Shown piece after piece: positions 1-49,460 of a DNA stretch of 64,000 nucleotides. Made by a program: the position numbers and the translations under genes. Each line of letters begins with the position of its first letter. The stretch's first letter is position 1. Source of the DNA: Bryoerythrophyllum caledonicum (Eukaryota > Streptophyta > Bryopsida > Pottiales > Pottiaceae); NCBI GenBank assembly GCA_963971425.1, contig OZ020517.1, positions 2,296,501-2,360,500 on the forward strand, in the 5' to 3' direction. The notes beneath the pieces are model-generated. The model was given only the letters and a program-made list of their open reading frames with translations, searched no databases and was not told the origin of the DNA.

Positions 1-609
1 TCTACCAAAGAAAAGAAAAGAAGTCTAAATCTACCAACATGTGTAGTTGTGAGAAACAATCAGGGAAACCATTTCACTATTGCCAACTTCGGCACCTTCC
101 CTAGGTTTGAAAAATTGTTAATTGACCATGAAATTTTTGATACAAGATTGCCTCTATGTTGATATAATGTGTGCCAAATTTTAAGGCGAGAAGATGAATA
201 CAAAAAACCATCATCAAAATCTACCAACATATTTAACTATGAGAAACAAATTTGAGTATCTTTTTTTGTATTATCATGTGGCCTTGAAATTTGGCACACT
301 TGTTTTGAACATAGAGGTGATCTTGTGTGATAAATTTCACTGTAAATAAATCTTTTTTATTTACCTAGGGAAGGTGTGAAAGTTGGCAGCTGTGAATGGC
401 TCACAACTACACATGATGGTAGATTTTGAATATCTTTTTTTTTCACCTTCTGGCCTTGAAATTTTGCACACGTGTTGTCAACATAGAAGTGATCTTGTGC
501 CAAAAATTTCATGGTGAAATGACAATATTTTAGCCCTCATGAGGGTGTCAAACTTGGCAGCAGTGTAGTGTGGAAATGTAAATAAACGTATACTTATTGC
601 CGTGTACTG
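1..609. mobile_element. Fold-back Tc1/mariner-type element D (left end outside window)
   Basis: The sequence consists of modules of about 185 bp. Forward copies (for example CTACCAACATGTGTAGTTGT followed by TTGCCAACTT) run to about 245. Inverted copies of the same text (TGGCCTTGAAATTTGGCACA; GTGTCAAACTTGGCAGC) run from about 250 to 560. The right end reads ...GCCGTGTACTG at 609, followed by TA, so the inward-read tip is CAGTACACGGCAATAAG. CAGT tips next to TA are typical of Tc1/mariner-type elements. The inner part of this end (TTTCCACACTACACTGC read inward) matches element A at 46-47 kb, but the outermost bases differ. No coding capacity is seen. The left end lies upstream of the window. Confidence 0.7.
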
Positions 610-1128: not shown

Positions 1129-1768
1129 TCTACCTATATAATAGCCAATAGTCTGTCCGTCCGCCGCTCCCTAACCCTAAACCTAACCCTAAAAACCCTA
1201 AAAACCCTGAAAATCCTAAAAACCCTTAAACACCTAAAAACCTTGGAAACCCTAAAAACCCTAAAATCCCCTTAAAATCCTAAAACCTCTAAAAGCCCTA
1301 AAACCCCTAGAAACCCTAAAACCCCTAAAAACCCTAAAAGCTCTAAAAACTATAAAACCCTAAACCCTAAACCTAAGATTTCGCTGGAACATGCGTGTTG
1401 TTGTTGGTGAATGCCATGTGGATTTGGGCAACCGTACATTTCCAGAGTGGCTACTAAGGACAGGTTGGAAAAGGTGATGGATGACATAATCAGGTGTCCA
1501 TGGGTGATGATTGTTGGCAATCACACCTTGAACGGCTTGATCAATGCCGTCTATGGAGGAATTGCTGACGTCGAAGCAAATGCGCACGAGTACTTCAGCG
1601 GTCGTGCCATCCTTGACGCACGGAATGGCGACGTTTTGCGGATCAACGCACGACATTTCGAGGGATGCAAATGGCAATCTAAAATATAATACGTCAAACA
1701 AATTTTATTCTAAGGAGCACTAATTAAAAACCTTCCCCGGTCGGAACGAAGGGTACCAAGGCTTGTAC
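1129..1768 (+). mobile_element. Helitron relic 1 with helicase fragment
   Basis: The element starts A|TCTACCTATATAATA and shares its whole layout with 3583-4097: a GTCTGTCCG...CCGCTCCC leader, a telomere-like tract, a helicase fragment, and a 3' end with a CCGGTCGGAACGA hairpin region. The plus-strand fragment at about 1390-1690 retains SGRAILDARNGDVLRINA, which fits the Helitron PIF1-like helicase motif (RAIL-x-x-x-N-x-x-V-x-x-IN), but the frame is broken upstream. The 3' end here reads GCTTGTAC instead of a CTRR end, so this copy's terminus is mutated or my boundary is a few bases off. It is a dead, non-autonomous copy. Confidence 0.6.
1156..1378 (+). repeat. Interstitial telomere-like CCCTAAA tract in Helitron 1
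   Basis: About 220 bases of degenerate CCCTAAA/CCCTAAAA units, the plant telomere repeat with length variation (ACCCCTAAAAACCCTAAAA and similar). It lies between the 5' leader and the helicase fragment of the Helitron relic. The second Helitron copy has a shorter tract at the same place, so the tract belongs to the element and is not a chromosome-end relic. Confidence 0.75.
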
Positions 1769-3542: not shown

Positions 3543-4275
3543 CGTTGGAATAGACATTTATTCATTAAACTCTAGGATTATATCTACCTAGTATATAATA
3601 TGCGTCAGTTAGTCTGTCCGCCGCTCCCTAACTCTAACCCTAAATCCTAGCCCTAAACCTTAATCCTAATCCCTAAACCCTAAACCCTAATCTAAGACTT
3701 TGCTGGAACATGCGCGCTATTGTTGGTGAGCGCTGTGTGGATTTGGGCAACCGTACATTTATAGAGTGGCTCCTGGCGTTGGGGGAGGACATGCTGGAGA
3801 AGGTGAAGGATGACTCGATCAGGTGTCCACGGACGATGATTGTCGGCAATCACACCTTGAACGGCTTGATCAATGCCGTCTATGGAGGAATTGCTAACGT
3901 TGAAGCAAATGCGCGCGAGTACTTTAGCGGTCGTGCCATCCTTGCCGCACGGAATGACGACGTTGCGCGGATCAACGCATGACGTTCCGAGGGATGCAAA
4001 TTGCAATCTAAAATATAATACGTCAAACAAACTTTATTCTGAGGAGCACTAATAATAAACCTTCTCCGGTCGGAACGACGGATACCGAGGCTTCTAGTTA
4101 TATAACTACCCATATCAGTACCACTGATCTTGATATTACTACTAGTTGATAATAGTTAAGTAAGTGGCGGCTCCATCTCGGAGTACGATTTCCGCCCTAT
4201 TAACGGGCGTATGTATTAACCAACTTTATAACCATATCCCTCTCAGGGGACATCTATCTTTATCCAGCTTGAACA
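3543..4275 (+). mobile_element. Copia-type LTR split by a Helitron
   Basis: The two parts, 3543-3582 and 4098-about 4275, align end to end with the LTR at 21065-about 21279. Shared stretches include CATTCATTAAACTC-like, TATCAGTACCACTGATC, CCCTATTAACGGGC and ATGTATTAACCAACT. The difference is roughly one base in ten, so the pair is old. Downstream, AACACGTTATCAGCACGA (about 4273-4290) resembles the tRNA-iMet half-molecule primer sites of some copia elements, which would make this the 5' LTR. Whether it belongs to the decayed element at 17-21 kb is an inference. The exact LTR ends are uncertain by a few bases. Confidence 0.7.
3583..4097 (+). mobile_element. Helitron relic 2 (515 bp), precise insertion in a copia LTR
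   Basis: It begins A|TCTACCTAGTATATAATA and ends GAGGCTTCTAG|T, the TC...CTRR ends and A/T target that define Helitrons. The empty site is visible in the other LTR copy near 21090, so the boundaries are supported to about one base. A CCGGTC/GACGG hairpin lies about 15 bases from the 3' end. The plus frame 3710-3982 (90 codons) contains TFIEWLLALGEDM and SGRAILAARNDDVARINA, matching the C-terminal part of the Helitron helicase, and then stops. The N-terminal Rep domain and most of the helicase are missing, so it could only move with help from a complete element. Confidence 0.8.
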
Positions 4276-6964: not shown

Positions 6965-7559
6965 CCTCTGCAAGTCGTCGTGGTTGCGTCACATTGAACA
7001 TTTTCACCAGGGTAGTGCTGCTATGATATGGCTAGTTATCGTAGAACCATAATTACCCCACTTAGGTCTATGATACTATTTTATTGTGTTGGCAACGGGA
7101 TGGCCCAAACTCCGCATCAAGTTAATCAATTGTTGTCAGCCTTAATTTGAATTTAAAAAACAAAGTTAGTCGTGACTATAGCATTTCAATTAGTTGCTTC
7201 TGCAGTTAGAAGCATTCCACTTTTCTGGATTTATCATTTTTTGTAAGTGAATAACGACAACACCAGGGAATAATTAACTTCAAGCAGACTTAGTGGCTTA
7301 GTAGATACAACTAGTGCATATCTATTTGTAAATTGCTGACTCAGATCATGACCTCTAGATTTGAATCTGAACTTTGTCGTTTTCGTGTGAACTTACAACA
7401 TACACTCGTTTATCACTAAAGTGAATGATAAACTCCCCCTTAGTAGGATCAACCTATTAATTTCTTTCCTTAATTTGAAATCTTTTCCATAATGATTGCG
7501 GCGCCGTCAGGGAGCGTGCATGGGCATCTGACATAAAGCGTTAAATATTTTCGCCGATT

Positions 7560-10500
7560 ATGAGCACGATGCGTTTCCGTAATTGGACGTCTCCACTGAG
7601 ATGTTTAGGCAAGTTGTTGATTTCTTCAATATCCAACCGTCATCATAGACAGCACGCATTCCATATCCTATGCTGTGGAGAGCTCTTGACTATGGCGTCA
7701 CTGACATCTCAATATGGTGGTGTTCCGCTTGTCGTGTCCGTTGGCGAGAATGGCACTGTTAATGTCCCGGAGGCAGTCCTCAGTAGTCGCTTCGGGTATA
7801 GACTTGGAACCGTCCATGTTGAGCAAGAGGTGTTTGATAGCTCGGGAGTATTAGAACATTCTATATACCAAGTGAAAGATCGAGACGATTTAGGCTTTCT
7901 GTGGAACCTGTGTCGTGGTTCTTTTAAAGTATATGGTGTTAGGGATACTCAAACGTCCGCTAATGCGTCGTGTGCCGTGATGATCCCTCCTACTGATTCT
8001 GGTGATACGATACTCGTGCCCGGTTTGGGCACACGGTCTAACCCAAGCGTGCAGCTTCTAAGTGACACGGACGAGGACCTCTCTGATGTGAATTTAGGGG
8101 AATCATCGTACACCTTTAAGTCACAAGACTCTATCTGTCCCGATACGTCTATCCATACCCCAAGTAGGTCGCACATGTCTCCGTCTCTTTCCTTAGGAAA
8201 ACCACCTGTCCATCCAAAATCTACAAGTATCCGCAGTATCATTCCTTATGTTCGCAGGACCTGTACTAGAAAGGGATCCCGTTCTGAGTTGACACAAGTG
8301 GATTTCGACAGCATTCAGGTTTCACGTGTGAAGTATCTGCCTCCGTCATACAACGGGGACGTGTTGTTTGAGTTGCCCCCACTTCCAGAAGGCATACCAA
8401 CTCAGTTTGGAGGAGGACTGGATGGTATGAGCAAGCAACACGATGGTCACACATGGTGCAAGACAATGACTACGAATATCATGAATGATTTTGGCCTCAC
8501 ATATTGGAAGTCATCTTGTACTGGCCATCTTCAATGTCCTAACTATCACTGTGACTATAAGTGCAGGAATGAAGGTCGCACTAATCAAACGGAGTGGAGT
8601 GGACTCGCCATTTCCCCTTGGCCTGTGAATGGCGCTACGCACCCTAAATCAACCTTGGCATGTAAGGTTTGTCAAACCCCGCCGATTTGTCTAGCTCTCT
8701 GTGATGCTCGTATTTATTATGTGACGTGTACCGATGCGGAGCGCACCCGACTTGCCATTCATCTTGGTATTCACCAGCATCTCATCTCGAATGGAGTTGA
8801 CCAAACCGCAATGGACGTGATGCATGAGTGCGTTGCGAAGGAAGTCGAGCGCACACCCAACGCCACTAATTTTGCTATCATTATGGCAGCCAGTAAGAAT
8901 TACCTATCCGATTACTTGATCCGTCCCGGATCGGGATCATCAAACCTTGAAGGAGCATCCATGGATGCTGTCTTGGATCAGTTCCAGACTCTATCATCCC
9001 CAAACATTCGAAATTTGGTATCGACATGCAAGCGCTTCTACAGTGGTGGGAAGGGTGTCATGGACAACATCATGGAGCTAAAGGAGTCGTCCAAGTTTGT
9101 CTTCATCCACGAGAACAAGTTCCCGGGCCAATCTAAAGGTAAGGTATTTGTATTTAAAATGTCTGTTGATCGTCCGGGTAGCGGTGTTGATCTTGTTCGG
9201 CGGATGCAACCGGGTGGAGACCTTCAAGATTGTTGGTTGATGTTTGATCACGTTAAGCGGGTTAAAGACTGGACTACCATGGCATGCCATGTATATGACA
9301 GTAAGTATTGTAAAGTTATGACGATAGCTATGTGTGATATGCAATCGGAGGATGCTCAAGCACAACAGTTGTTTTGGGAGAACCTGAATGATACGATGAG
9401 CCATCACGGAGTTGAGAATACGAACTTTAAAGGGTTCATGGCTGATAGTGCCGGAGCGAATTGGCACGCTGTCCGGCGAGTGTATGGCAATGGCGACAAG
9501 GACGTCCCGATCGAAAACAAAGAACGGACTTGTTTATTCCATTGGACCAAGTGCCTTCAACGAGCCACCACGAAGAGCATTCTACCAGCATTCCAAGATC
9601 AACACATTGCACTTTGCAAGATTTGGAAGAACGCGAGATCACAAGAAGAGGCTGAAGCACAGTACAACGTCATTCGTGGATGGTGGATTTCATCTGGGGC
9701 TACTACTGAAAGCGGGCGTCGGGCGCTAGAAGATTGGATGGCTTTTTGGCATTTCCGATATAGACAATGGGATGGAGCAATGCAACTAGTAAGTTCTCGG
9801 ATTTTTTGTTTATAAATATTCAGATTGTTGAAAAGTTATATGTAAACGATGTACTGACCATTGCTGTATGATATCAGGACCTCACACTGGACGAGCGAGC
9901 TAACATGCCATCATGCAATCTTGCGGAGACAGTCCACAACCGCTGGCTTCAACAGTCCGGAAATACCATGACATGTTTATATGCGGCTACCGTGGATGAC
10001 CTAATTCGGGCTTTCATGCAAATCACTTTGTACCGGGCATGGATCAATGGAGGGACCTCCGGAAAAGGTCCAGACAAAGGTACACTTCGATTAAGATCTG
10101 CCCAACGTTCTGGTGATCCAAAACTCATTGCAGAAGCTGTGCGGAGTTTTCCGGGGGCAGATGATCTCTTGACAAAGACGGGCGGGCTCGTAGGAGCGGA
10201 GATTTTTGGGTCTACCAAACGGAAACTTGACATGCCACCGGGGTCCAGCAACGACTCCCACCGCTCCGATACGATGAACTATTCGATTCCACGAGATGGC
10301 AGAAGGGTGACTCGAGCGCGGATCGAAGAGGCCCTAAATGAACAAGGTTCCGGGGTCCGTCACTCAACGGCAGTATTGGAATCGGAGGTTGATCCATCAA
10401 AGTGGCACATTGGTCGACTTCCGAAGACCTCCCACCGAAAGTGCCAGGCATTGCAGGCTCACACTGGTCAGAGATGTGACGCTAGAGTTGGACGTGGGAG

Positions 10501-11245
10501 TCAGGGAACACCTGCCCCAACATATATTGGCAAGAAGAAGGAATTCAGGTCGCCCCGAAACACTATTGTCGAGTTCTGGTTTTGTGCTGATGATATTAAC
10601 CGATGCGTGATGGGTTCGAAGAAACCGTTTGTAGTGGATTGGCCATCAGTCCCAATGACATGGCCAGTGAAGCTTGGCACGAACCTTACGATGCAAGAAG
10701 TTTTATCGTTAGAAGAAGCAGGTTTTCAGTTAGAGCAACGTGGTGCTTTGTCGCCTCGGAGACAATTCCAAGTAACTTTGAACATGCCTCTTCCGCGATC
10801 AAACTTCCCGCTTCCAGATAATCCGGACTCATACCATACTTTCCGCAACGGCTACCAGATTCGTCGAAGTTCAGATGTGCCTTCCGTTGAGCACCGAAAC
10901 AAGTGGTCAAGCGCAGCTCTGATGAAGAATTGCTACGTTACAAATGTCACCGCAATGCCGTATCCGAGATTTGGATGCGTTATCACTCTTCTAACGGAGA
11001 AAGAGAAGTCTTATTGCATAACCTTCACAGACTACCCTGCGTGTACATGTCCAGATTTCCTGAAGATGTCAGTGGAGGCGTTGGGGAAGAAAGGGCAATG
11101 GAAGTACTGCAAGCATGTGTACTACATCCTACGCTATTTATGTCAGATGGACTACAAGGAGGACTTATTCATGCATGCCCCAAGCTATAGCTTTAACGAG
11201 GTCATGCGCATTCTAGAGCTTGCTAATATTGCCGAGCAAGCATGA
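7560..11245 (+). CDS. MULE-like transposase with C-terminal SWIM zinc finger
   Basis: Two exons, 7560-9788 and 9878-11245, joined in frame through a GTAAGT donor and ATATCAG acceptor, give about 1198 residues. Translation could instead start at the later ATG at 7692 (MASLTSQYGGVP). A DDE-type core is suggested by D563 (in MFDHVKRVKDW) and D629 (in FKGFMADSAGANWHAV); the third acidic residue was not assigned. An HW-containing segment (ERTCLFHWTKCLQRAT) follows. The C-terminus has a SWIM zinc finger with C1132-x-C1134 and C1154-x-H1156. SWIM fingers are typical of Mutator-like and FAR1-related transposases. Apart from the intron the frame is unbroken, so the gene is young or still under constraint. 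Its terminal inverted repeats were not identified. An alternative is a domesticated transposase, as no element ends are visible. Confidence 0.75.
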
Positions 11246-22018: not shown

Positions 22019-22411
22019 TTTTGAAATATTATATTCCCGCTCCTAGTACAGTGACACCGACTCACGTCGTGGACAGCATGGGAGTCATACTCGTCCTGTC
22101 AACATGGCACCAACGTTGTTCTCATGATCACACCACCAACTCATGAGAACACCGCTGACTTTGCACACAAACCATATTACATATAAAACTTAGTATGCAC
22201 AGATGACTGATCATCCTAAGCCATTATGCCTGCTAGTGAGTCAGAAGCGAGAGATACAAGATATATGCTGTAAGAAAACCGGCAATAAAGATAGCCACTT
22301 TATTGCCAGCCTTGGAGTCGCCTGAGTCCATGTTTGAGTCGTTGAGTATGCCTGTGGTAGACTGACCGCTTCATCTACCTACAGAGCACCTTTTTGCTGT
22401 AGTTAACAAAA
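22019..22411 (+). repeat. 5' LTR of the intact copia
   Basis: The boundaries come from the AAAGT target duplication and from the PBS starting at the next base. They give LTR ends TTTTG...CAAAA, a perfect 5-bp inverted repeat, in place of the usual TG...CA, which would lie three bases further in on each side. The LTR contains an AATAAAG polyadenylation-like motif near 22285. Confidence 0.85.
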
Positions 22412-22425
22412 GGTTATGGGCCCAC
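22412..22425 (+). promoter_or_regulatory. Primer binding site, tRNA-iMet anticodon-region (half-tRNA) type
   Basis: GGTTATGGGCCCAC is complementary to the anticodon stem-loop region of initiator tRNA-Met (which contains GUGGGCCCAUAACC), and not to the tRNA 3' end (whose complement would be TGGTATCAGAGC). Priming from a cut tRNA half is established for Drosophila copia and yeast Ty5. It directly follows the 5' LTR with no spacer. Confidence 0.7.
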
Positions 22426-22735
22426 GCCGCCGCAACTGCTGCCCCGCCATGATGTTATGATCTGTTCTGAGCTGCTTCGGAACACTGTTCATCTGGATCT
22501 GGAACTTGTCGATTAGTTAGCAGTTTCCATGGCAACATGCAGGCATGCAACTGGATGTTCATGCCGGTGCTCGAAACTTTGCTTTATCTTGATCTGTTTC
22601 TTTCTATCAATTGCTATTTGGTCCATGCTCATCGTATGCCTGATCATCGCCAAGTACGTTCGTCTTTAGAGTAAACATAAAGTTTTTTGAGAGATAGAAC
22701 GTGGTCCTCAGTAGTCAACATTTGCAGCGACTACA

Positions 22736-25700
22736 ATGGGAGATCAAAGTCGAGACTTGTCCAATATTGAGAGGTTTTCAGGTGAGCACTTTGTGCTATG
22801 GAAGTTTCAAATGACTGCCATGCTGAAGGGAAAGGACCTGTTCCATGTAGTAGATGGAACAGAGACGCTTAACAACACCGGCGATCCAGAAAGTTGGAGC
22901 CGCCTGGATAGTCAGGCACTATCTCTTCTGTGCCAGGCTGTGGACAGAAAAGAATTGCAAGGTCTAGTAAATTGTCGGCACGCTCATGAGTTTTGGGACA
23001 AGCTTTTAGTAGTGCATGAACAAAAGGCCGCTGATAACGTCCATATGCTCCAAGCTAAATTCTACATGATCACCATGGAGCCAGGAGAGAAGGTTTTCAC
23101 TTTCATTAGCAGAGTGGAAATGCTCGTCAACCAGATCCGCGCCCTTGGCAATGAGACACTGAACGAGATGGCAATCATGATCAAGATCTTGTGTAGCTTG
23201 CCTCGAAGCTACTCAGCGTTTAAATCTGCATGGGAGAGCGTACCAGTGAACGACCGCACTCTCGATATGCTCACCATGCGACTTATCGTGGAGGAGCAGC
23301 GGATGGAACCTGAAGATTCCTTGGTGACAGCTATGACGGCACTGAAGATGAAGGGCAAAGGAGGACCACCAAGAGACAGTTCGGCAAGTCAACGACCAAA
23401 GCCTAGACCGACACCAGACAAGCCGAGATCATCGCTGACATACGAGCAGCGACAGGCGAGACGCAAGGAGATAGAAGAGCAGAAGAAAGTAACTGAGTGC
23501 TTTTGCTGCGGCAAGAAGGGCCACTGGGCAGATGAATGCACCCACGAGCCACTGGATCGATCGGGAGAGAAGAGGGAAACTAACAGCAAGGAGAAGGAAG
23601 TGCCTCAGCCGCGAGCATGGATGGCAAGTCTCTCCGAAGTAATTGACCTCACCGATGCTTGGTACGCAGACAGTGGAGCAACCCAACACATGACTGACAA
23701 ATATGCGTATTTTGATGAGTATACAGACATGACTGCACAGAATGAAACTGTCTCAGGGATAGGTGGCGGTGTCTACCCGGTCGCCGGGATGGGTTCCATC
23801 AACATCCTGGTTCAGCTTGGCGATCAGTGGGAGCATCAGCAACTCAGGGACGTGTTGCATGTCCCCGAGCTTGGTAGAAATCTTTTTTCTATCTCTCGAG
23901 CTGCAAGCCGCGACGTCGATACCATCCTCACTCGTGACGGTTGCCGCATGCTCTCGGGAGGCACCGAAGTCCTCATTGGAACCTTGGAGCACAGTTTGTA
24001 CCGTCTCCAGATGAGGGCATGCTCACGGCCTACAGACAGCACGCCAACTTTGGCTCTAGGAGCTTTTGGAGGGCAAACTCATGCACAGACCAAACAAACT
24101 TTATCTATATGGCACAAGCGCCTCGGCCACTTGCATAGCAATATGATACAAACGATGGTCACTAACGACATGGTCAGTGGACTTTCTCTCAAACCAAGCT
24201 ATGATGAGCCTCAGTTCTGTGAGCCGTGTGTCTATGCAAAGAGCCATCGAGCGACTTTTCCTAAGAATGAGCCTCGAATCCGAGCTAACGTTATAGGAGC
24301 CTTGGTTCACTCTGACATCTGTGGTCCTCTCAACGTGCCATCCGTAGGTGGATCTCGTTACATGGTTACCTTTAAGGATGACAGCTTAGCCTTTCAGGTC
24401 ATCTACACTGTTGCTCAAAAGTCCGAGGCCCTCACATCCTTCAAGAACTTCGTCGGCCGACTTCAGCGAGAAACAAACCACCACGTTAAGCGCCTCCGCT
24501 CAGACAGAGGTGGGGAGTACACTAGCCGCGCCTTCCAAGACTATCTCGCAGGTATCAACTGCAGCCATGAGTTTACTACAGCTTACACACCTGAGCAGAA
24601 TGGCGCAGCCGAGCGAGCAAATCGTACAATCATGGAGATGATTCGTAGCATGTTGATAGCTGGGACAGTCCATAGCCGTTTTTGGGCAGAAGCGGCGCAC
24701 ACTGCTGTCTACATCCTTAATCGCACTGGCACGCGAACCTTGCCAGGACAAACTCCTCATCAAATCTGGTATGGCGTCAAACCTTCTTTAGCACATTTTT
24801 GCATTTTTGGGTGCATCTGTTATGTTCACATCCCCGCCGAGCGCCGACAGAAATTAGACGCCAAGGCCACCAAGGGCATCTTTATGGGCTACAGCGACCA
24901 CAGCAAAGCATATCGTATTTGGCTCCCCTCCGCCCAGCGTTTCGAAGAAACCCGCGACGTGACCTTCCACGAGGACACCACCCCTAGATTAGATTGCCCA
25001 GCTCAACCTGATGACAATACCCACATCTTTTTAGTTCCAGACTCCCCAAAACCCGAGCAAGAGCAACCCTTGCAACCTGCTTTTTCGGAGGGAGCTAGTG
25101 GGAGCACCGCCATAGATCCTATTAATAGCCTGGAGCCCATGCCACATCCAACTGGCGATGTCTGCCCTCCAGATCAACCACCGCTCCAAGTCTATACTCG
25201 GCGGCCACGTTCACCACGGCCAACACCTGATCCACACTCCATGACAACACATCCCATCGAACCAGGAGCGCCATCTGTCCGCCAACGAAACCCACCTCCC
25301 CGATTTGGTGATTGGGTCTACCCAGTCGGTAGGCACTATGCTTACACTGCGAACTCGGACGAGCTCCTTGAACCCGTGGATTACTCCGCCGCCCTCCGTT
25401 CGCCACAACATGCCGACTGGCAACGTGCTATGGTCGAGGAGTACACCTCTCTCATACGCAACCACACATGGGTCTTGCAAGACCTCCCGCCTGGCCGCAC
25501 CGCTATCCACAACAAATGGGTATACAAACTCAAGCGCGACAGTTCAGGCCAGATTGCCCGCTTCAAAGCTCGTCTCGTTGCCAAAGGTTTCACCCAACGC
25601 CCTGGCATCGACTATGATGAGACGTTCTCCCTAGTTGTGAAATTTGACTCTATTCGGACAGTGCTTTCTGTTGCCGCGGCTCTTGACATGGACCTGACAC

Positions 25701-26926
25701 AATTTGACGTCAAGACCGCTTTCCTCTATGGACACATCACGGAGGAGATTTACATGCGCCAGCCTCGTGGATTCGAAGACTCGGATCATCCTGATCAGGT
25801 ATGCCGACTCCAGCGTGCATTATATGGGCTCAAACAGAGCTCCCGCGTCTGGAATCAACGTTTTGATGCCTTCTTGACAGAGTTTGATCTGAAACCTAGT
25901 GATGCAGACCCTTGTGTATACTTCAGTAGTACCCATCCTTCTCTTATGGTCATTCTTTTTGTAGACGATGGGATAATTTGCACTTTTGGTGTAGCTCGAG
26001 CTCTCCTCATCCTTGGTTTCATGGGAGAAGCCTTCGAAATCACCCATGATATCCCTGAAGTCTATGTTGGCATCCATATCACACGTAACCGTCCTACTCG
26101 TAGCTTGTCCATTGATCAGAGCCGCTATATTCACTCGAAACTGTACGAGTTTGGCTTCGGTAGCTGCCACCCTGTTTCTGTCCCTGCCGACCCCAATTCT
26201 CGACTAGAAGTTTTCAACGCGTCCACTGATGAGGATACCTTATCTGCGTCCTCCTTTCCATACAAGTCAATGGTCGGTAGTCTCTCTTTTGCCGCTCTTG
26301 GGACTCGGCCAGACATCTCCTATGCCACCAGTATCTGCGCCAAATACAATGACTGCCACCACCAACCTCATCGAGCTGCTGTCAACCGGATCTTCAAGTA
26401 TCTTAGTGGCACTCCACATATGTGCCTCACCTACACCGCCACATCCTCACCCAACCTGCTCACTGCTTTTTGCGACGCTGACTTTGCTGGTGACATTGAT
26501 GACCGCCGCTCACGCAGCGGCGTTATCCTCATGCTCAACAACGGACCTGTTGCCTGGATCAGCCGGAAGCAGACTTCGACCGCAGCAAGTACAACCGAAT
26601 CAGAGTACCTTGCCGCTCATTTAGCGACCAAAGAAGTTCTTTGGATGCGTCGCCTCCTCGCCAGCATCGGCTGTCCTCAGCCCCATGCCACACCTCTCTT
26701 TAGTGACAACCAGGCTGCCATCCGCCTCGTCCGCAACCCTGAATTTCACCGTCGCACCAAGCACATCGACGTCGCCTACCACATCATTCGCGAGCACCAG
26801 GACAGCGGCACCATCGACATCTGCTATATACCTACTCATGACCAGTTGGCCGACTTCCTCACCAAGAGCCTTCCGCCTGACAAGTTTTGTCGGCTACGTA
26901 CGCTTCTTGGCCTTACTGCCATGTAG
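22736..26926 (+). CDS. Copia gag-pol polyprotein
   Basis: One frame of 1396 residues encodes, in order: gag with a CCHC zinc knuckle (CFCCGKKGHWADEC, residues 255-268); an aspartic protease (DSGA at D312); a GAG-pre-integrase motif (IWHKRLGHL, about 458); an integrase core with D527, D590 and E626 (DD35E spacing); reverse transcriptase, with FVDDG at about 1075-1079 in place of the common YVDD; and RNase H with a TTESEYLAA segment near E1290. All catalytic landmarks are present and there is no stop, so it may be active. It makes virus-like particles and copies its RNA into DNA. The nearest lineage cannot be set without a tree. Confidence 0.95.
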   Translation: MGDQSRDLSNIERFSGEHFVLWKFQMTAMLKGKDLFHVVDGTETLNNTGDPESWSRLDSQALSLLCQAVDRKELQGLVNCRHAHEFWDKLLVVHEQKAADNVHMLQAKFYMITMEPGEKVFTFISRVEMLVNQIRALGNETLNEMAIMIKILCSLPRSYSAFKSAWESVPVNDRTLDMLTMRLIVEEQRMEPEDSLVTAMTALKMKGKGGPPRDSSASQRPKPRPTPDKPRSSLTYEQRQARRKEIEEQKKVTECFCCGKKGHWADECTHEPLDRSGEKRETNSKEKEVPQPRAWMASLSEVIDLTDAWYADSGATQHMTDKYAYFDEYTDMTAQNETVSGIGGGVYPVAGMGSINILVQLGDQWEHQQLRDVLHVPELGRNLFSISRAASRDVDTILTRDGCRMLSGGTEVLIGTLEHSLYRLQMRACSRPTDSTPTLALGAFGGQTHAQTKQTLSIWHKRLGHLHSNMIQTMVTNDMVSGLSLKPSYDEPQFCEPCVYAKSHRATFPKNEPRIRANVIGALVHSDICGPLNVPSVGGSRYMVTFKDDSLAFQVIYTVAQKSEALTSFKNFVGRLQRETNHHVKRLRSDRGGEYTSRAFQDYLAGINCSHEFTTAYTPEQNGAAERANRTIMEMIRSMLIAGTVHSRFWAEAAHTAVYILNRTGTRTLPGQTPHQIWYGVKPSLAHFCIFGCICYVHIPAERRQKLDAKATKGIFMGYSDHSKAYRIWLPSAQRFEETRDVTFHEDTTPRLDCPAQPDDNTHIFLVPDSPKPEQEQPLQPAFSEGASGSTAIDPINSLEPMPHPTGDVCPPDQPPLQVYTRRPRSPRPTPDPHSMTTHPIEPGAPSVRQRNPPPRFGDWVYPVGRHYAYTANSDELLEPVDYSAALRSPQHADWQRAMVEEYTSLIRNHTWVLQDLPPGRTAIHNKWVYKLKRDSSGQIARFKARLVAKGFTQRPGIDYDETFSLVVKFDSIRTVLSVAAALDMDLTQFDVKTAFLYGHITEEIYMRQPRGFEDSDHPDQVCRLQRALYGLKQSSRVWNQRFDAFLTEFDLKPSDADPCVYFSSTHPSLMVILFVDDGIICTFGVARALLILGFMGEAFEITHDIPEVYVGIHITRNRPTRSLSIDQSRYIHSKLYEFGFGSCHPVSVPADPNSRLEVFNASTDEDTLSASSFPYKSMVGSLSFAALGTRPDISYATSICAKYNDCHHQPHRAAVNRIFKYLSGTPHMCLTYTATSSPNLLTAFCDADFAGDIDDRRSRSGVILMLNNGPVAWISRKQTSTAASTTESEYLAAHLATKEVLWMRRLLASIGCPQPHATPLFSDNQAAIRLVRNPEFHRRTKHIDVAYHIIREHQDSGTIDICYIPTHDQLADFLTKSLPPDKFCRLRTLLGLTAM

Positions 26927-26954
26927 CACAGTGAGTCTGATCACTGAGTGGGAG

Positions 26955-27347
26955 TTTTGAAATATTATATTCCCGCTCCTAGTACAGTGACACCGACTCA
27001 CGTCGTGGACAGCATGGGAGTCATACTCGTCCTGTCAACATGGCACCAACGTTGTTCTCATGATCACACCACCAACTCATGAGAACACCGCTGACTTTGC
27101 ACACAAACCATATTACATATAAAACTTAGTATGCACAGATGACTGATCATCCTAAGCCATTATGCCTGCTAGTGAGTCAGAAGCGAGAGATACAAGATAT
27201 ATGCTGTAAGAAAACCGGCAATAAAGATAGCCACTTTATTGCCAGCCTTGGAGTCGCCTGAGTCCATGTTTGAGTCGTTGAGTATGCCTGTGGTAGACTG
27301 ACCGCTTCATCTACCTACAGAGCACCTTTTTGCTGTAGTTAACAAAA
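26955..27347 (+). repeat. 3' LTR of the intact copia
   Basis: Same 393 bases as 22019-22411 with no difference seen by eye, followed by the second AAAGT copy at 27348-27352. Confidence 0.9.
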
Positions 27348-44684: not shown

Positions 44685-45326
44685 ATGACAATTCCAAATG
44701 AAATTATTGCTCTCATAGTGGGAATGAATGAGAGAGGAATGAGTTGTGCTAGTATTGCAAGAATTGTAGGAGAGTCAAGTAGGACACTACAAAGAATTAT
44801 CAAGCAATTTTAAGAGCATGAAACTTACCAGGAAAATTCAAGCAGTGGAAGACCCAAGAAACTTAGTGAGAGGGATGTTCATCAAATTTTATTATTCTAC
44901 AGAACTCATCGTCAATCATCATTTCAAGGTATCACCAATGCTTGCCCTATGGAGGTGAGTACTAGGATTATTTTCCATGTTTTGCATGACCACAACCTTT
45001 TTTAGTAGAATTGCGGTGAAGAAGCCTTTCTTGACACCTCTTCATATGTCGCGGCGACTACATTTTGCAAGACAATATTGTGGATGGAGTGCTGAAGAGT
45101 GGGGACGTGTTTGTTGGACAAATGAATCATTTTTGAAATTGGCAAAGTTTCAAGGCAAATTCATGTTTGGAAAACGGCATATGAGCAATATTCATCAAGT
45201 TGTGTAGTTCCCACTTTCAAGAGTGGGAGGATATTTCTCATGATTTGGGGAGGGTTTGGAGGAGACAAAAAATTAGAGCTTGTGTTTATGCCAAAGGATA
45301 GTCGCAAAGCTATTGATTTGATGGAG
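44685..45326 (+). pseudogene. Tc1-like transposase relic
   Basis: From ATG 44685 the frame reads NERGMSCASIARIVGESSRT (helix-turn-helix), hits a stop near 44812, and continues GRPKKLSERDVHQILLFY, the GRPR-type hinge between the two DNA-binding helices. After a frameshift near 44980 it reads SRIAVKKPFLTPLHMSRRLH, FARQYCGWSAEEWGRVCWTN, ESF and then LMIWGGFGG. The order HTH, GRPR-like, (R)K-P-x-L-(S/T)P-x-H, F-A-x-x-x-x-W, W-(S/T)-D-E-S, V-W-G is that of Tc1-family transposases, not of plant DD39D mariner-like ones. The first catalytic D is N here (WTNES), and the part with the other two acidic residues is gone. Fold-back modules start right after it at 45327. Confidence 0.75.
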
Positions 45327-46263
45327 TTGGTCTTTTTTTTTTGTGTGTATAGATCTTTTGGCTTTGAAATCCATCTCACATGTTTCCAACATAGAGATGA
45401 TCTTGTGACCAAATTTTCATTATGTATCAACAAAAACTCAATCCTAGGAAGGGTGTTGAAGTTGGAAGTAGTGGTAAGCTTTCCCCTTTGTTTCTCACAA
45501 CAACACATGAGAGTAGACTTGGTATATGTTTTTATGTGTAGATCTTTTGGATTTGAAATTTCCAACAATTGTATTTGACCTGAAGATGATTTCATACCCA
45601 AATTTTCATGGACAAATATTTTTTTTGAGTTCTTGGGAGGTTGTCAAAGTCGGCAGCCTTGAAACTTTTCTCACAGCTAACCCCCATGTTAGTAGATTTT
45701 GAATATCTTCTTTTGAATACATTTTATGGCCTTGAAAAATTTCTCACATATTATCAACATAAAGATAACCTTGTGTCAAAAATTTCATATTGAAATAACA
45801 AACTATCAACCCTAGGGAGGGTGTCAAAGTTGGAAGTAGTAAAATGGTTTTTCCCTATGTTTCTCACGACTACACATGTTGGTAGATTTGGGATGTGATT
45901 TTTTTCGTGCTTTGGACTTGATAATTTCCACACATGTAATCAACATAAAGATGTTCTCACTCCAAAAATTTCATAGGCAAAAAAATTTCCTCAATCCTTG
46001 GGAGGGTGTCAAAGTTGGCAGCTGTGAAACTTTTCTCACAACTTCCCCATGGTGGTTAATCTTTAATATATATATATTTTTAAAATCCCTTGGACTTGAA
46101 ATTTGGTATGCATGTTTTCAACATAGAGATGATGTTGTCCCCAAAATTTCATAATTAAATAACAATTTTTTAGCCCTATGGAGGGTGTCAAAGTTGGCAG
46201 CAATGTGGAACACCATCCCTGAAATTGCCCAAACGCCAATTTGAATGTCACCCTATTGTACTG
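45327..46263. mobile_element. Fold-back Tc1/mariner-type element C, right arm
   Basis: Five head-to-tail modules of about 185 bp, all in the right-arm orientation. The landmark GTGTCAAAGTTGGCAGC or a variant recurs near 45450, 45640, 45825, 46008 and 46188. The arm ends ...CACCCTATTGTACTG at 46263, followed by TA at 46264-46265, so the inward-read tip is CAGTACAATAGGGTGACATT. The TA is shared with the start of element A. No left arm is present. The Tc1-like relic lies immediately to the left, so C may be the arm of a broken transposase-bearing element. Confidence 0.6.
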
Positions 46264-46265
46264 TA

Positions 46266-47233
46266 CAGTGGGGTCCAAAAATAATTCGAATTTTTTGCTT
46301 ATGTACATATCCACTACACTGCTACCAACGTTGGTGCCCTCCTGAGGGCTGAAAAATTGTCAATTCACCATGAAATTTTTGGCACAAGATCAATTCTATG
46401 TTGAAAACATGTGCGCCAAATTTCAAGGCCAAGAGATTTATACAAAAAAAGATATCCAAGATTTACCAACATGGGATAGTTGTAAGAAAAGTTTCACAGC
46501 TACCAACTTTGACACCCTCCCAAGGATTCAATTTTTTATTTTTTCCCATGATATTTTGGACATAAGACCATCTCTATGTTGATTATATGTGTGTTTAATT
46601 TCAAGTCCAAAAGATCCACAAAAGAAAAGAAACAAATCTAAATCTACCAACATGTGTAGTTGTGAAACAATTAGGGAAACCATTTCACTATTGCCAACTT
46701 TGGCACCCTCCTTAGATCGGAAAATTTGTTAATTGACCATGAAACTATTGGCACAAGATCATCTCCATGTTGATGACATGTGTGCAAAAATTCAAGGCCA
46801 AAAGACGAATACAAAAAACCATCTTCAAAATCTACCAAAATATGTAGTTATGAGAAACAATTTTGAATATTCTTTTTTTTTATTCTTCATGTGGCCTTGG
46901 AATTTGGCACACTTATTATAAACATAGAGATGATCTTGTGCCAAAAATTTCAAGGTAAATTAAAAAATAATCAACCGTAGGGAGGATGTCAAAGTTGGCA
47001 GCTATGAATGGCTCACAACTACACATCTTGGTAGATTTTGAATATCTTTTTTTGTATTCATCATCTAGACTTTAAATTTGGCACACATTTTTTTAACATA
47101 GAAATTATCTTGTGTAAAAAATTTCATGGTAAATTGACAAATTTTCAGCCCTGAGAAGGGCGCCAAAGTTGGTAGCAGTGTAGTGTGGAAACGTACATAA
47201 GCAAAAAATTCGAATTATTTTTGGACCCCACTG
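46266..47233. mobile_element. Fold-back Tc1/mariner-type element A (968 bp)
   Basis: TA at 46264-46265 and TA at 47234-47235 flank near-perfect terminal inverted repeats. The first 40 bases in each direction begin CAGTGGGGTCCAAAAATAAT and continue TCGAATTTTTTGCTTATGTA. Behind the tips, forward modules (TACCAACTTTGACACCCTCC and following) fill about 46310-46850, and inverted modules fill the rest. The whole element could fold into one long imperfect hairpin. It has no coding capacity. Confidence 0.85.
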
Positions 47234-47235
47234 TA

Positions 47236-47439
47236 CAATGGGCAGTTACAAATTAGGAAATATGGCCTTACCCACAAGTCGGTGGAACGTCTTGTAGGGT
47301 ACAAGAGGGAGTTTCAAACAACATTGCAACTGTAAGATTGACAAACTTGACATAATTCTGACATGCAACTGAATCCATTGAACATTGCCAGACTGAATCC
47401 TGATATTGAACAAATGACAGCATCTCAAAGGTTTCAATG
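47236..47439. other. Non-repeat spacer between elements A and B (possible old exon)
   Basis: 204 bases that are neither tip nor module. Minus-strand translation gives FEMLSFVQYQDSVWQCSMDS followed by VACQNYVKFVNLTVAML, open and protein-like, but unidentified. On the far side of element B the minus strand has GAGTGCAG|CGTCTTGTGCTGTA, an acceptor-like site that would read into this frame if B were removed. Whether it was ever a gene is open. Confidence 0.3.
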
Positions 47440-47441
47440 TA

Positions 47442-48693
47442 CAGTCCCCTTCAATAAGGTTACGTACTTTTTGCATTCCTAGGGATAGTAACTTTCAGTG
47501 CTACCAACTGTGACACCCTCTTGAGGGTGAGAAATTGCTATTTTACCATGAAATTTTTGGCACAAGATCATTTCTATGTTGACAACACGTGTGTAAAATT
47601 TCAAGGTCGGAAGTCGAATAAGAAAAAAGATATTCAAGATCTACCAACATGGGTAGCACTAAGAAAAGTTTCACAGCTACGAACTTTGACACCCTCCCAA
47701 GGATTGAATTTTTTGTTTTTGCCCATGTAATTTTTGGCATTAGACCTTCTCTGTGTTTATTACATGTTTAAAGTCCAAAATATCCACACTAAGAAACATA
47801 TTTAAAATCTATCAACATGTGTAGTTGTGAGTGTAGTTGTAAGAAACATTTCACTCCTCGCCAACTTTGACACACTCCCAAGGATTAAATCTTTTGCTTT
47901 TGCACATGAAATTTTTGGCATGAAACCATGTCTGTATAGAATACATGTGTACCAAGTTTTAAGGCCAGAATACCTACATAGTAAAAGATTTTTGAAATCT
48001 ACCAACATGTGTAGTTGTGAGATTTTGGAAATGAGACCATCTCTATGTTGATTTTACGTGTGCTTAATTTCAAGTCTAAAATATCCACTATAGAAAAGAA
48101 AAAAATCAAAATCTACCAACGTGCTAATTGTGAGAAACAACCGCGTACCATTTCAACTTTGGCACCTTCCCTAGGTTTGAAAGATTGTTATTTTACTATG
48201 AAATTTTTAACACATGATCACCTCTATGTTTATAACATGTGTGCCAAATTTCAAGGTTAGAAGATGAATAAAAAAACCCATATTCAAAAATCTACCAACA
48301 TGTGAAACTATGAGAAACAATCTTGTGTATCTATTATTGTATTCATCACATGGCTTTGAAATTTAACACACATGTTATCAGCATAGAGGTGATTTTCTGA
48401 TAAAAATTTCATGGTTAAATATCAAATTTTCAGCCCTCAGGAGGGTGTCAAAATTGGCAGTAGTGAATGACTTACAACTACACATGTTGGTAAATTTGGA
48501 ATATCTTTTTCTATATTCGTCTTCTGGCCTTGAAATTTGGCACACATGTTGACAACATAGAAATGATCTTGTGCCAAAAATTTCATGGTAAAATAACAAT
48601 TTTCTAGATCTCAAGAGGGTGTCAAAGTTGGTGGCACTGAAAGTTACTATCCCTAGGAATGCAAAAAGTACGTAACCTTATTGAAGGGGACTG
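47442..48693. mobile_element. Fold-back Tc1/mariner-type element B (1252 bp)
   Basis: TA flanks at 47440-47441 and 48694-48695. The terminal inverted repeats begin CAGTCCCCTTCAATAAGGTT and continue ACGTACTTTTTGCATTCCTA, with no difference in the first 60 bases. They then run into the same module text as elements A, C and D (CACCCTCTTGAG, ACCATGAAATTTTTGGCACA). The arms are forward modules on the left and inverted modules on the right. It is non-coding. Confidence 0.85.
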
Positions 48694-48695
48694 TA

Positions 48696-49460
48696 CAGTA
48701 CAGCACAAGACGCTGCACTCACAACAGCTCCTCTAGAGCCAACATCCAACATTGTCACATGAAACTTCTCCTCTTGCTTTTTTATTCAGTGGCATCAGGT
48801 GAGGATATTTGCATTGGTCTGATGTGACAAATATTGTAAAGATTCATCAATGTTGCACTCTGTGGAAGAGAAAAATCAGTTAAAGCATGCGAGTCAAAAT
48901 AATTGCACAGTTGAAAAAGAGATTCCAGAGAATTTCTTCTTTACTTATTTGATTATTCTTCTTAAGCTTCAGAGAATTCTAAAAACCTCATCAGAACCAG
49001 ATTATTATAAACTATGTGGAATATGCCGGGATGCAATTTGAAGCATATCTTTCCGAACACTTGCAAACATTCTTCTTGGATTCAAAGCATATCTTCTAAA
49101 ACTATGCTTTGGATCCAAATACTCCATAGAACCAAAATTGAAACGTGTTCTAGAAGATATGATTTGGATCCAGGGTTTGATGATATTGTATACAAAATTT
49201 TAAAAAAATCAATAAAAACTGCAACTTATTACCATGACGTATGTTCATTGAAGGCGGAAATGTAGCTCACATCACATGACTTGTACCTGCAACAGTTCGC
49301 GAAGCAACTACGGTGGCCTTCTATTCTGACACGTGGCAGAAACCTCCAATTCAGACCAACCGACACTCCACGTCACACATCCCCCACAACTGCCACGTCA
49401 GTACTTCGACATCTTGCCACCTGTGTGGCGGTCACCTGGTTCTGTTTTATGGTTGGAGTA
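48696..49460. other. Intergenic, no gene seen
   Basis: No frame with recognisable features. A GC-rich patch at about 49270-49450 (CACCTGTGTGGCGGTCACC) stands out from the AT-rich surroundings but has no clear reading. Confidence 0.4.

What the first reader, a model, noticed from the sequence alone, without database searches (positions are those of the whole stretch)
45327..48693. Fold-back Tc1/mariner-type family with shared modules but different tips
Elements C, A and B here, and D at 1-609, are bounded by TA, begin CAGT, and share about 185-bp modules. The modules run forward in left arms and inverted in right arms (C has only a right arm). Yet the outer 40-60 bases differ: CAGTGGGGTCC (A), CAGTCCCCTTC (B), CAGTACAATAG (C), CAGTACACGGC (D). 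A and D share the inner TTTCCACACTACACTGC but not the outermost bases. Transposases recognise tips, so one arm family with four tips suggests tip swapping and use of several transposases. I know of no description of this.
Basis: partly seen in the sequence, partly recalled or inferred. Interest (0 to 1): 0.85.

Follow-up and report, generated by a model that had tools for sequence, protein, structure and literature searches.

The report
Fold-back plant transposons with exchanged tips
A plant genome holds a family of hairpin-like jumping-DNA parasites whose bodies descend from one ancestor but whose recognition tips match different helper transposons, which suggests that body and tip are exchanged and that the parasites can change helpers.

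Summary
A (46266-47233) and B (47442-48693) are complete fold-back elements between TA dinucleotides; D is the right part of a third; "C" is the right arm of a transposase-bearing family. The window's own 437-Mb plant genome could be searched: a tip-plus-module pattern has 1,023 exact matches, its reversed control none.

The arms belong to Tc1-like families C1, C2 and G. A, B, D and two classes found elsewhere (E, F) are non-autonomous and share one arm-to-arm junction and mirrored arm trees, hence one body.

Their tips do not follow the body. B and E share 93% of the interior but 57% of the tips. B's outer 26 nt match the tip of armless family T at 25-26 of 26, and all three T copies listed carry it. 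E matches armless family V at 24 of 26. One of 21 complete fold-backs has an F tip and an E tip.

Tip exchange is well supported for B and E. A, D and F have no identified partner, and mobilisation was not tested. Closest precedents: coral CMITEs and Drosophila Galileo.

The parts
1..609 (.). Element D, right part of a fold-back (modules D_L3 69-245, D_R2 246-395, D_R1 400-570; tip CAGTACACGGCAATAAGTATACG read inward from 609; TA at 610-611). Its left part lies outside the window.
44687..45328 (+). Broken P-type Tc1-like transposase remnant (stops, frame breaks, C-terminal third missing)
   Evidence: 70% to P0001, 62-65% to L063/L064, 37-46% to the C1, C2 and G transposases
45340..46258 (-). 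Element C: five-module right arm, outermost module grouping with C1; tip CAATAGGGTGACATTC read inward
46259..46265 (.). TACTGTA between C and A, of the form of a Tc1-type excision footprint; its right TA is the left TA of A
   Evidence: footprint form TAC(A/T)GTA from PMC3432063 passages
46266..47233 (.). Element A, complete fold-back of 968 bp, three modules left and two right, ends identical over the outer 41 nt, arm-to-arm junction near 46857; TA at 47234-47235
47442..48693 (.). Element B, complete fold-back of 1252 bp, longer left arm and two-module right arm, ends identical over the outer 60 nt, junction near 48317; TA at 47440-47441 and 48694-48695; its tip matches family T
48694..48700 (.). 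TACAGTA directly right of B, footprint-like

Best explanation
A, B and D (with classes E and F elsewhere) are non-autonomous fold-back elements descended from one deletion derivative of a modular-armed Tc1-like transposon of the C/G lineage (supported by the shared junction and arms). Their outer tips have a different history from their bodies: B carries the 26-nt tip of armless family T, and E, with 24 of 26 matches, the terminal repeat of armless family V. So body and tip were recombined at least once after the B and E bodies parted (strongly supported). Most likely each class is cut and pasted in trans by the transposase whose tip it carries (inferred). The exchange probably happened during repair of an excision gap: synthesis starts on the excised element's own tip, switches near the tip to a fold-back body elsewhere and switches back at the other end, leaving the same tip at both ends and an unaltered body between (inferred, the least certain step).
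For: One body: a shared arm-to-arm junction, 77-95% identical among A, B, D, E and F, spanned in all 11 fold-backs of the set tested and, for four query junctions against eight transposase-bearing loci, spanned only once and weakly (L060, 76% over 86 nt); mirrored pairings B-E and A-F in left and right arms. Tips apart from body: B-E interior 1117/1200 against tips 68/120, Fisher 3e-24, with two further pairs alike; A-F 86% over 845 nt up to 26 nt from the right end. Source of tips: V tip at both ends of an intact armless element; T tip 190 nt beyond each of the three T frames listed; fold-back B-T 25-26 of 26 and E-V 24 of 26, reached by 0 of 5000 shuffled sets. A tip labels its transposase: Mantel r 0.92 over ten autonomous families. 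A hybrid F/E-tipped element.
Against: No partner found for A, D or F; F and D match V at only 21 and 20 of 26. B, D, E, F, T and V tips resemble one another, so part of the match is family likeness. The T tip was read at the 3' end only. B's inner tip (nt 27-60) is not T sequence, so the exchange unit is not simple. TA flanks do not prove that the hybrid transposed. No mobilisation test.
Confidence: 0.75

Rival explanations
1. Change in place: the fold-backs kept their own ends, which changed base by base in step with diverging helper transposases; no exchange occurred and the likeness to T and V is co-evolution or convergence.
For: All tips start CAGT and most are about 59-60 nt long in register; B, D, E and F tips are alike; tips follow transposases in autonomous families.
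Against: B and E bodies differ by about 7% while their tips differ by 43% at both ends. B would have had to gain the T tip identically at both ends, though its adjoining modules differ left from right.
Confidence: 0.15
2. Ectopic recombination or conversion through the long arms made tip chimeras passively; one-sided exchange first, then one end copied onto the other. Tips were exchanged, but not by gap repair.
For: L029 has an F tip and an E tip; chimeric Galileo copies and the authors' exchange proposal (PMC3573991 passages); many elements abut each other at one TA.
Against: Only 1 of 21 complete fold-backs is a hybrid. Outermost left and right modules stay distinct, so copying of one end onto the other would have to stop within about 60 nt of the tip.
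Confidence: 0.3
3. Independent origins: several Tc1 families each captured the same 183-nt satellite units and built fold-backs separately.
For: Modules are tandem and armless Tc1 relatives exist.
Against: Modules group by position, not by element; the internal junction is shared by the fold-backs.
Confidence: 0.03

Closest known systems
CMITE families of Acropora corals (piggyBac MITEs; PMC2872659, abstract and passages)
   Same: Different terminal repeats on an interior more conserved than the repeats; one family shares its tip with an autonomous element
   Different: About 100 bp, TTAA target, piggyBac; the interior's origin was unknown and one tip partner was traced. Here Tc1-like, about 1-1.35 kb, the interior's source family known and two tip partners traced
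Galileo of Drosophila (P superfamily; PMC3573991, passages)
   Same: Long internally repeated inverted arms, chimeric copies, proposed sequence exchange making new subfamilies
   Different: Another superfamily with 7-bp target duplications; exchange described among subfamilies of one transposon, not with tips of other transposase families
Tc1-like elements of moss, PpTc1 and PpTc2 (PMC4054914, abstract and passages)
   Same: CAGT ends, TA target, DD34E transposase, plant host
   Different: 1.6-1.7 kb elements with 33-bp terminal repeats; no modular arms or fold-backs in the passages seen
Tetris of Drosophila virilis (PMC4079207, search listing only) and sea urchin TU elements (recalled, not read)
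   Same: Fold-back elements built of repeated units; modular make-up
   Different: Not compared in detail; no call here tests their tips against several transposases

Membership tests
Tc1-like elements | CAGT...ACTG ends and TA on both sides | tested here: met
   A and B; complete elements (a few tips read CAAT). A TA pair is weak evidence in AT-rich DNA.
Tc1-like elements | DD34E transposase | tested here: met
   Spacing counted by eye in P0001; related transposases of families C1, C2, G and X align over this part. The fold-backs encode none.
Fold-back elements | Long inverted arms built of tandem subrepeats | tested here: met
Galileo / P superfamily | P-type transposase and 7-bp target duplication | tested here: not met
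   TA flanks and Tc1-like transposases
CMITE (coral piggyBac MITEs) | TTAA target and about 100-bp size | tested here: not met
   TA flanks, 0.96-1.35 kb
CMITE-like behaviour | Interior better conserved between classes than the tips | tested here: met
   (B against E)
IR/DR Tc1 elements such as Sleeping Beauty | Second copy of the tip-proximal transposase site inside the arm | tested here: not met
   Blast of the window tips found no inner copy beyond the module start; a diverged site is not excluded
Elements mobilised by families T and V | Transposase binds and cuts the fold-back tips | not testable with these tools
   Only tip identity is shown

The most novel reading that the evidence does not exclude
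In this genome the roughly 26-nt recognition tip and the transposon body are separable, exchangeable cassettes. One fold-back body line has moved between the transposases of distantly related Tc1 families by changing the tips at both ends, which lets a non-autonomous parasite change its helper transposon when one helper dies.
Probability: 0.5. Interest if true: 0.75.

Novelty: new variant of a known kind. Interest (0 to 1): 0.6.

Why it matters
How non-autonomous DNA transposons come to have interiors unrelated to their helpers, and how they outlive them, is open; the coral CMITE paper calls the origin of its conserved interior a mystery. Here the source of the body, two tip donors and a one-sided hybrid coexist in one genome beside T and V transposases with open frames, so the question can be tested by binding and excision assays.

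Tried and rejected
Satellite-array reading: rejected. IR/DR reading (modules as inner copies of the tip site): no inner tip copies in the window. C as a fold-back or an intact autonomous element: rejected. Relatives in the viral and prokaryote collections: none found; the single 18-mer hit was a phage coincidence, and 23 pattern hits failed tblastn. Partner for A: not found (2 hits with 3 mismatches, not followed up). Partner for F: the search did not complete. Partner for D: not searched. Host species: not identified; one search used a guessed moss genus as one of six terms. A first A-against-others blast printed nothing and was redone with other settings. One search stopped on an error before its inner-tip half, which was not redone. 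One search's printout was cut; the junction test was repeated on all eight transposase-bearing loci. Class counts were made by eye on 100 listed rows of 1,023, two dropped as duplicates. Of the elements, second copies of a locus (L013, L047, L049, L052), L035 and the composite L061 were left out of the count of 21.

Full report
WHAT IS IN THE WINDOW. Element A (46266-47233, 968 bp) and element B (47442-48693, 1252 bp) run CAGT...ACTG and have TA on each side. Their outer bases are identical at the two ends: 41 of 41 in A, 60 of 60 in B. The modules further in fall to 86-89% and then 68-76%. Nineteen module units cut from A, B, C and D align at 60-87% identity and group by position in the element, not by element. 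D is the right part (1-609) of a third fold-back. C is a five-module right arm. Its tip is probably CAATAGGGTGAC ending at 46258: in L026, L043, L059 and L066 CAATAGGG directly follows the TA. In the window TACTGTA precedes it, the form of a Tc1-type excision footprint (PMC3432063, passages); but 5 of 100 listed places have CAGTACAATAG, so an extended tip in some copies is not excluded. Upstream of C lies a broken transposase (44687-45328), 70% identical to P0001, 62-65% to two P-type elements of the genome and 37-46% to the C1, C2 and G transposases. So C looks like a P-type remnant fused to a C1-type arm, perhaps by deletion in a P|TA|C pair such as the P|TA|C2 pair of L066 (inference).

HOST AND GENOME. 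A receptor-kinase-like and a SAM-domain frame, a copia element and an arogenate-dehydrogenase-like frame (both read by eye; Pfam shows only NAD-binding families for the latter) and CCCTAAA repeats point to a plant. The species was not identified. The genome (G000) has 437 Mb; the window is C4:2296501-2360500. The pattern TACAGT-(28 to 58 nt)-module start has 502 + 521 exact matches and 0 in the reversed control. One hundred were listed; by eye 98 are not duplicates: C1 32, E 24, F 13, B 9 (two variants), G 8, C2 6, A 5, D-like 1. Thirteen C1 pairs in that list face each other 3.25-3.85 kb apart.

WHO OWNS THE ARMS. Three C1 elements (3.68-3.79 kb; L042-L044) have five-module arms 97-100% identical left to right; three C2 elements (2.8 kb; L054, L059, L060) have shorter arms. 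Both enclose a Tc1-like transposase, as does G (L055; L057 broken). Two of the seven long frames compared (L043, L044) have no stop, the others one or two. The search with P0001 scored 120 of 4,380 candidates: nine are P-type (73-84%, all with stops), the others are 64-67% hits, many without a stop. Four P-type elements were read and have no modules; L063 and L064 have inverted repeats of about 220 bp, L065 and L066 show none of that kind.

ONE FOLD-BACK BODY. A, B, D, E and F carry no transposase in the copies examined. They share the point where the long left arm meets the two-module right arm, with 77-95% identity over about 120 nt. A 120-nt junction query is spanned in all 11 fold-backs of the set tested; against eight transposase-bearing loci four such queries hit only to one side, except one weak match (L060, 76% over 86 nt). 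In a tree of outermost modules the fold-back right arms form one clade (91/96); the left arms lie outside it in two clades. On each side B pairs with E and A with F. So left and right arms evolve together and have not been copied onto each other in those modules. The window's C arm groups with C1.

TIPS DO NOT FOLLOW THE BODY. B and E: interior 1117 of 1200 identical, tips 68 of 120 (Fisher 3e-24); two further pairs give 1104 of 1201 with 67 of 120, and 1067 of 1211 with 65 of 120. A and F: 86% over 845 nt, ending 26 nt from the right end; in another A copy the outermost 20 nt match F at 11. Of 21 complete fold-backs counted (A 9, B 5, F 4, E 2, hybrid 1), one, L029 (the same place as L052), has an F tip at one end and an E tip at the other. 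Its TA flanks do not prove that it transposed.

WHERE THE TIPS COME FROM. Searches with an X-type and a V-type transposase list further Tc1 families, each scoring about 120 of more than 4,200 candidates. Five elements were read at 2.6-2.7 kb; four have no module hit and L070 has one 16-nt hit. One, V (L071), has CAGTACCCACCAACAAGTTTACGTTCA at both ends and a frame without stops. Seven more were read only as about 280 nt beyond the frame; one, T (L075), has CAGTCCCCTTCAATAAAGTTACGTAC. Against 16 autonomous tips, fold-back B matches T at 25 of 26 (26 of 26 for the right tip of L025), E matches V at 24, F matches V at 21, D matches V at 20, and A's best is 17. Shuffled sets reach these scores in 0 of 5000 for B, D, E and F and in 62 of 5000 for A. 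A pattern for the B/T tip not followed by the fold-back T-run has 14 hits; the three without mismatch lie 190 nt beyond the three T frames, the other 11 were not followed up. Among ten autonomous families tip identity follows transposase identity (Mantel r 0.92, p 0.0002), so a tip is a fair label of its transposase. T and V transposases share 62-64%, V and C1 43%; T was not compared with C.

HOW IT MOST LIKELY WORKS. Shown: one body, several tips, two of them matching different armless families. Inferred: each class is moved by the transposase of its tip, and tip and body were recombined. Both ends of B carry the same 60 nt while the adjoining modules keep separate left and right histories, so I favour copying during repair of an excision gap: synthesis begins on the excised element's own tips and switches to a fold-back body elsewhere, perhaps at the T-run followed by GC near nt 28-33 that several tips share. 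This mechanism is recalled from work on other cut-and-paste elements, not read here. Exchange through the arms, as proposed for Galileo, is the rival mechanism.

AGAINST THIS. No partner is known for A, D or F: A was searched and two hits came back, not followed up; the F search did not complete; D was not searched. T was read at one end only. Tips B, D, E and F resemble one another and V, so part of the match is family likeness. B's inner tip is not T sequence. Nothing here tests mobilisation.

NOVELTY. Searches for print precedents led to two near ones: coral CMITEs, with different terminal repeats on a conserved interior of unknown origin (PMC2872659), and Galileo, with chimeric copies and proposed exchange between subfamilies (PMC3573991). 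The phrase 'TIR swapping' occurs in 0 held papers; most subscription papers are not in that library. I judge this a new variant of a known kind, with the body's source family and two tip partners traced.

Noticed in passing
L008 380-381, L019 1501-1502, L026 1571-1572, L035 1571-1572, L061 1014-1015, L066 3199-3200, L011 1451-1452 (with L062): Tc1-like elements of different classes stand tip to tip with one shared TA (for example F|TA|C2, P|TA|C2, C1-type|TA|A). The TA beside an existing element may be a favoured target.
   Followed up: partly
window 46259-46265 and 48694-48700; L058 4622-4627; L011 right flank: TACTGTA or TACAGTA beside element ends, of the form of Tc1-type excision footprints.
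   Followed up: no
G000, e.g. C6:22457463-22458461 and C12:12172935-12173933: Tc1 family W (read at L070) has at least ten hits with the same score, identity and stop-free 341-codon frame, which suggests recent transposition.
   Followed up: no
window 22019-27347: Copia-like retrotransposon with an open frame at 22715-26926 between two 393-nt direct repeats that are 100% identical: a recent insertion.
   Followed up: no
window 7545-11245: Two long open frames (756 and 457 aa) without any Pfam match at E 0.1; by eye they resemble a transposase with a terminal zinc-finger-like motif.
   Followed up: no
window 1185-1371 and 3626-3690: Runs of telomere-like CCCTAAA repeats inside a chromosome arm.
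   Followed up: no
L012 1503-2810 and L021 263-1561: E elements have unequal tips: the right tip lacks about 9 nt present in the left one.
   Followed up: no
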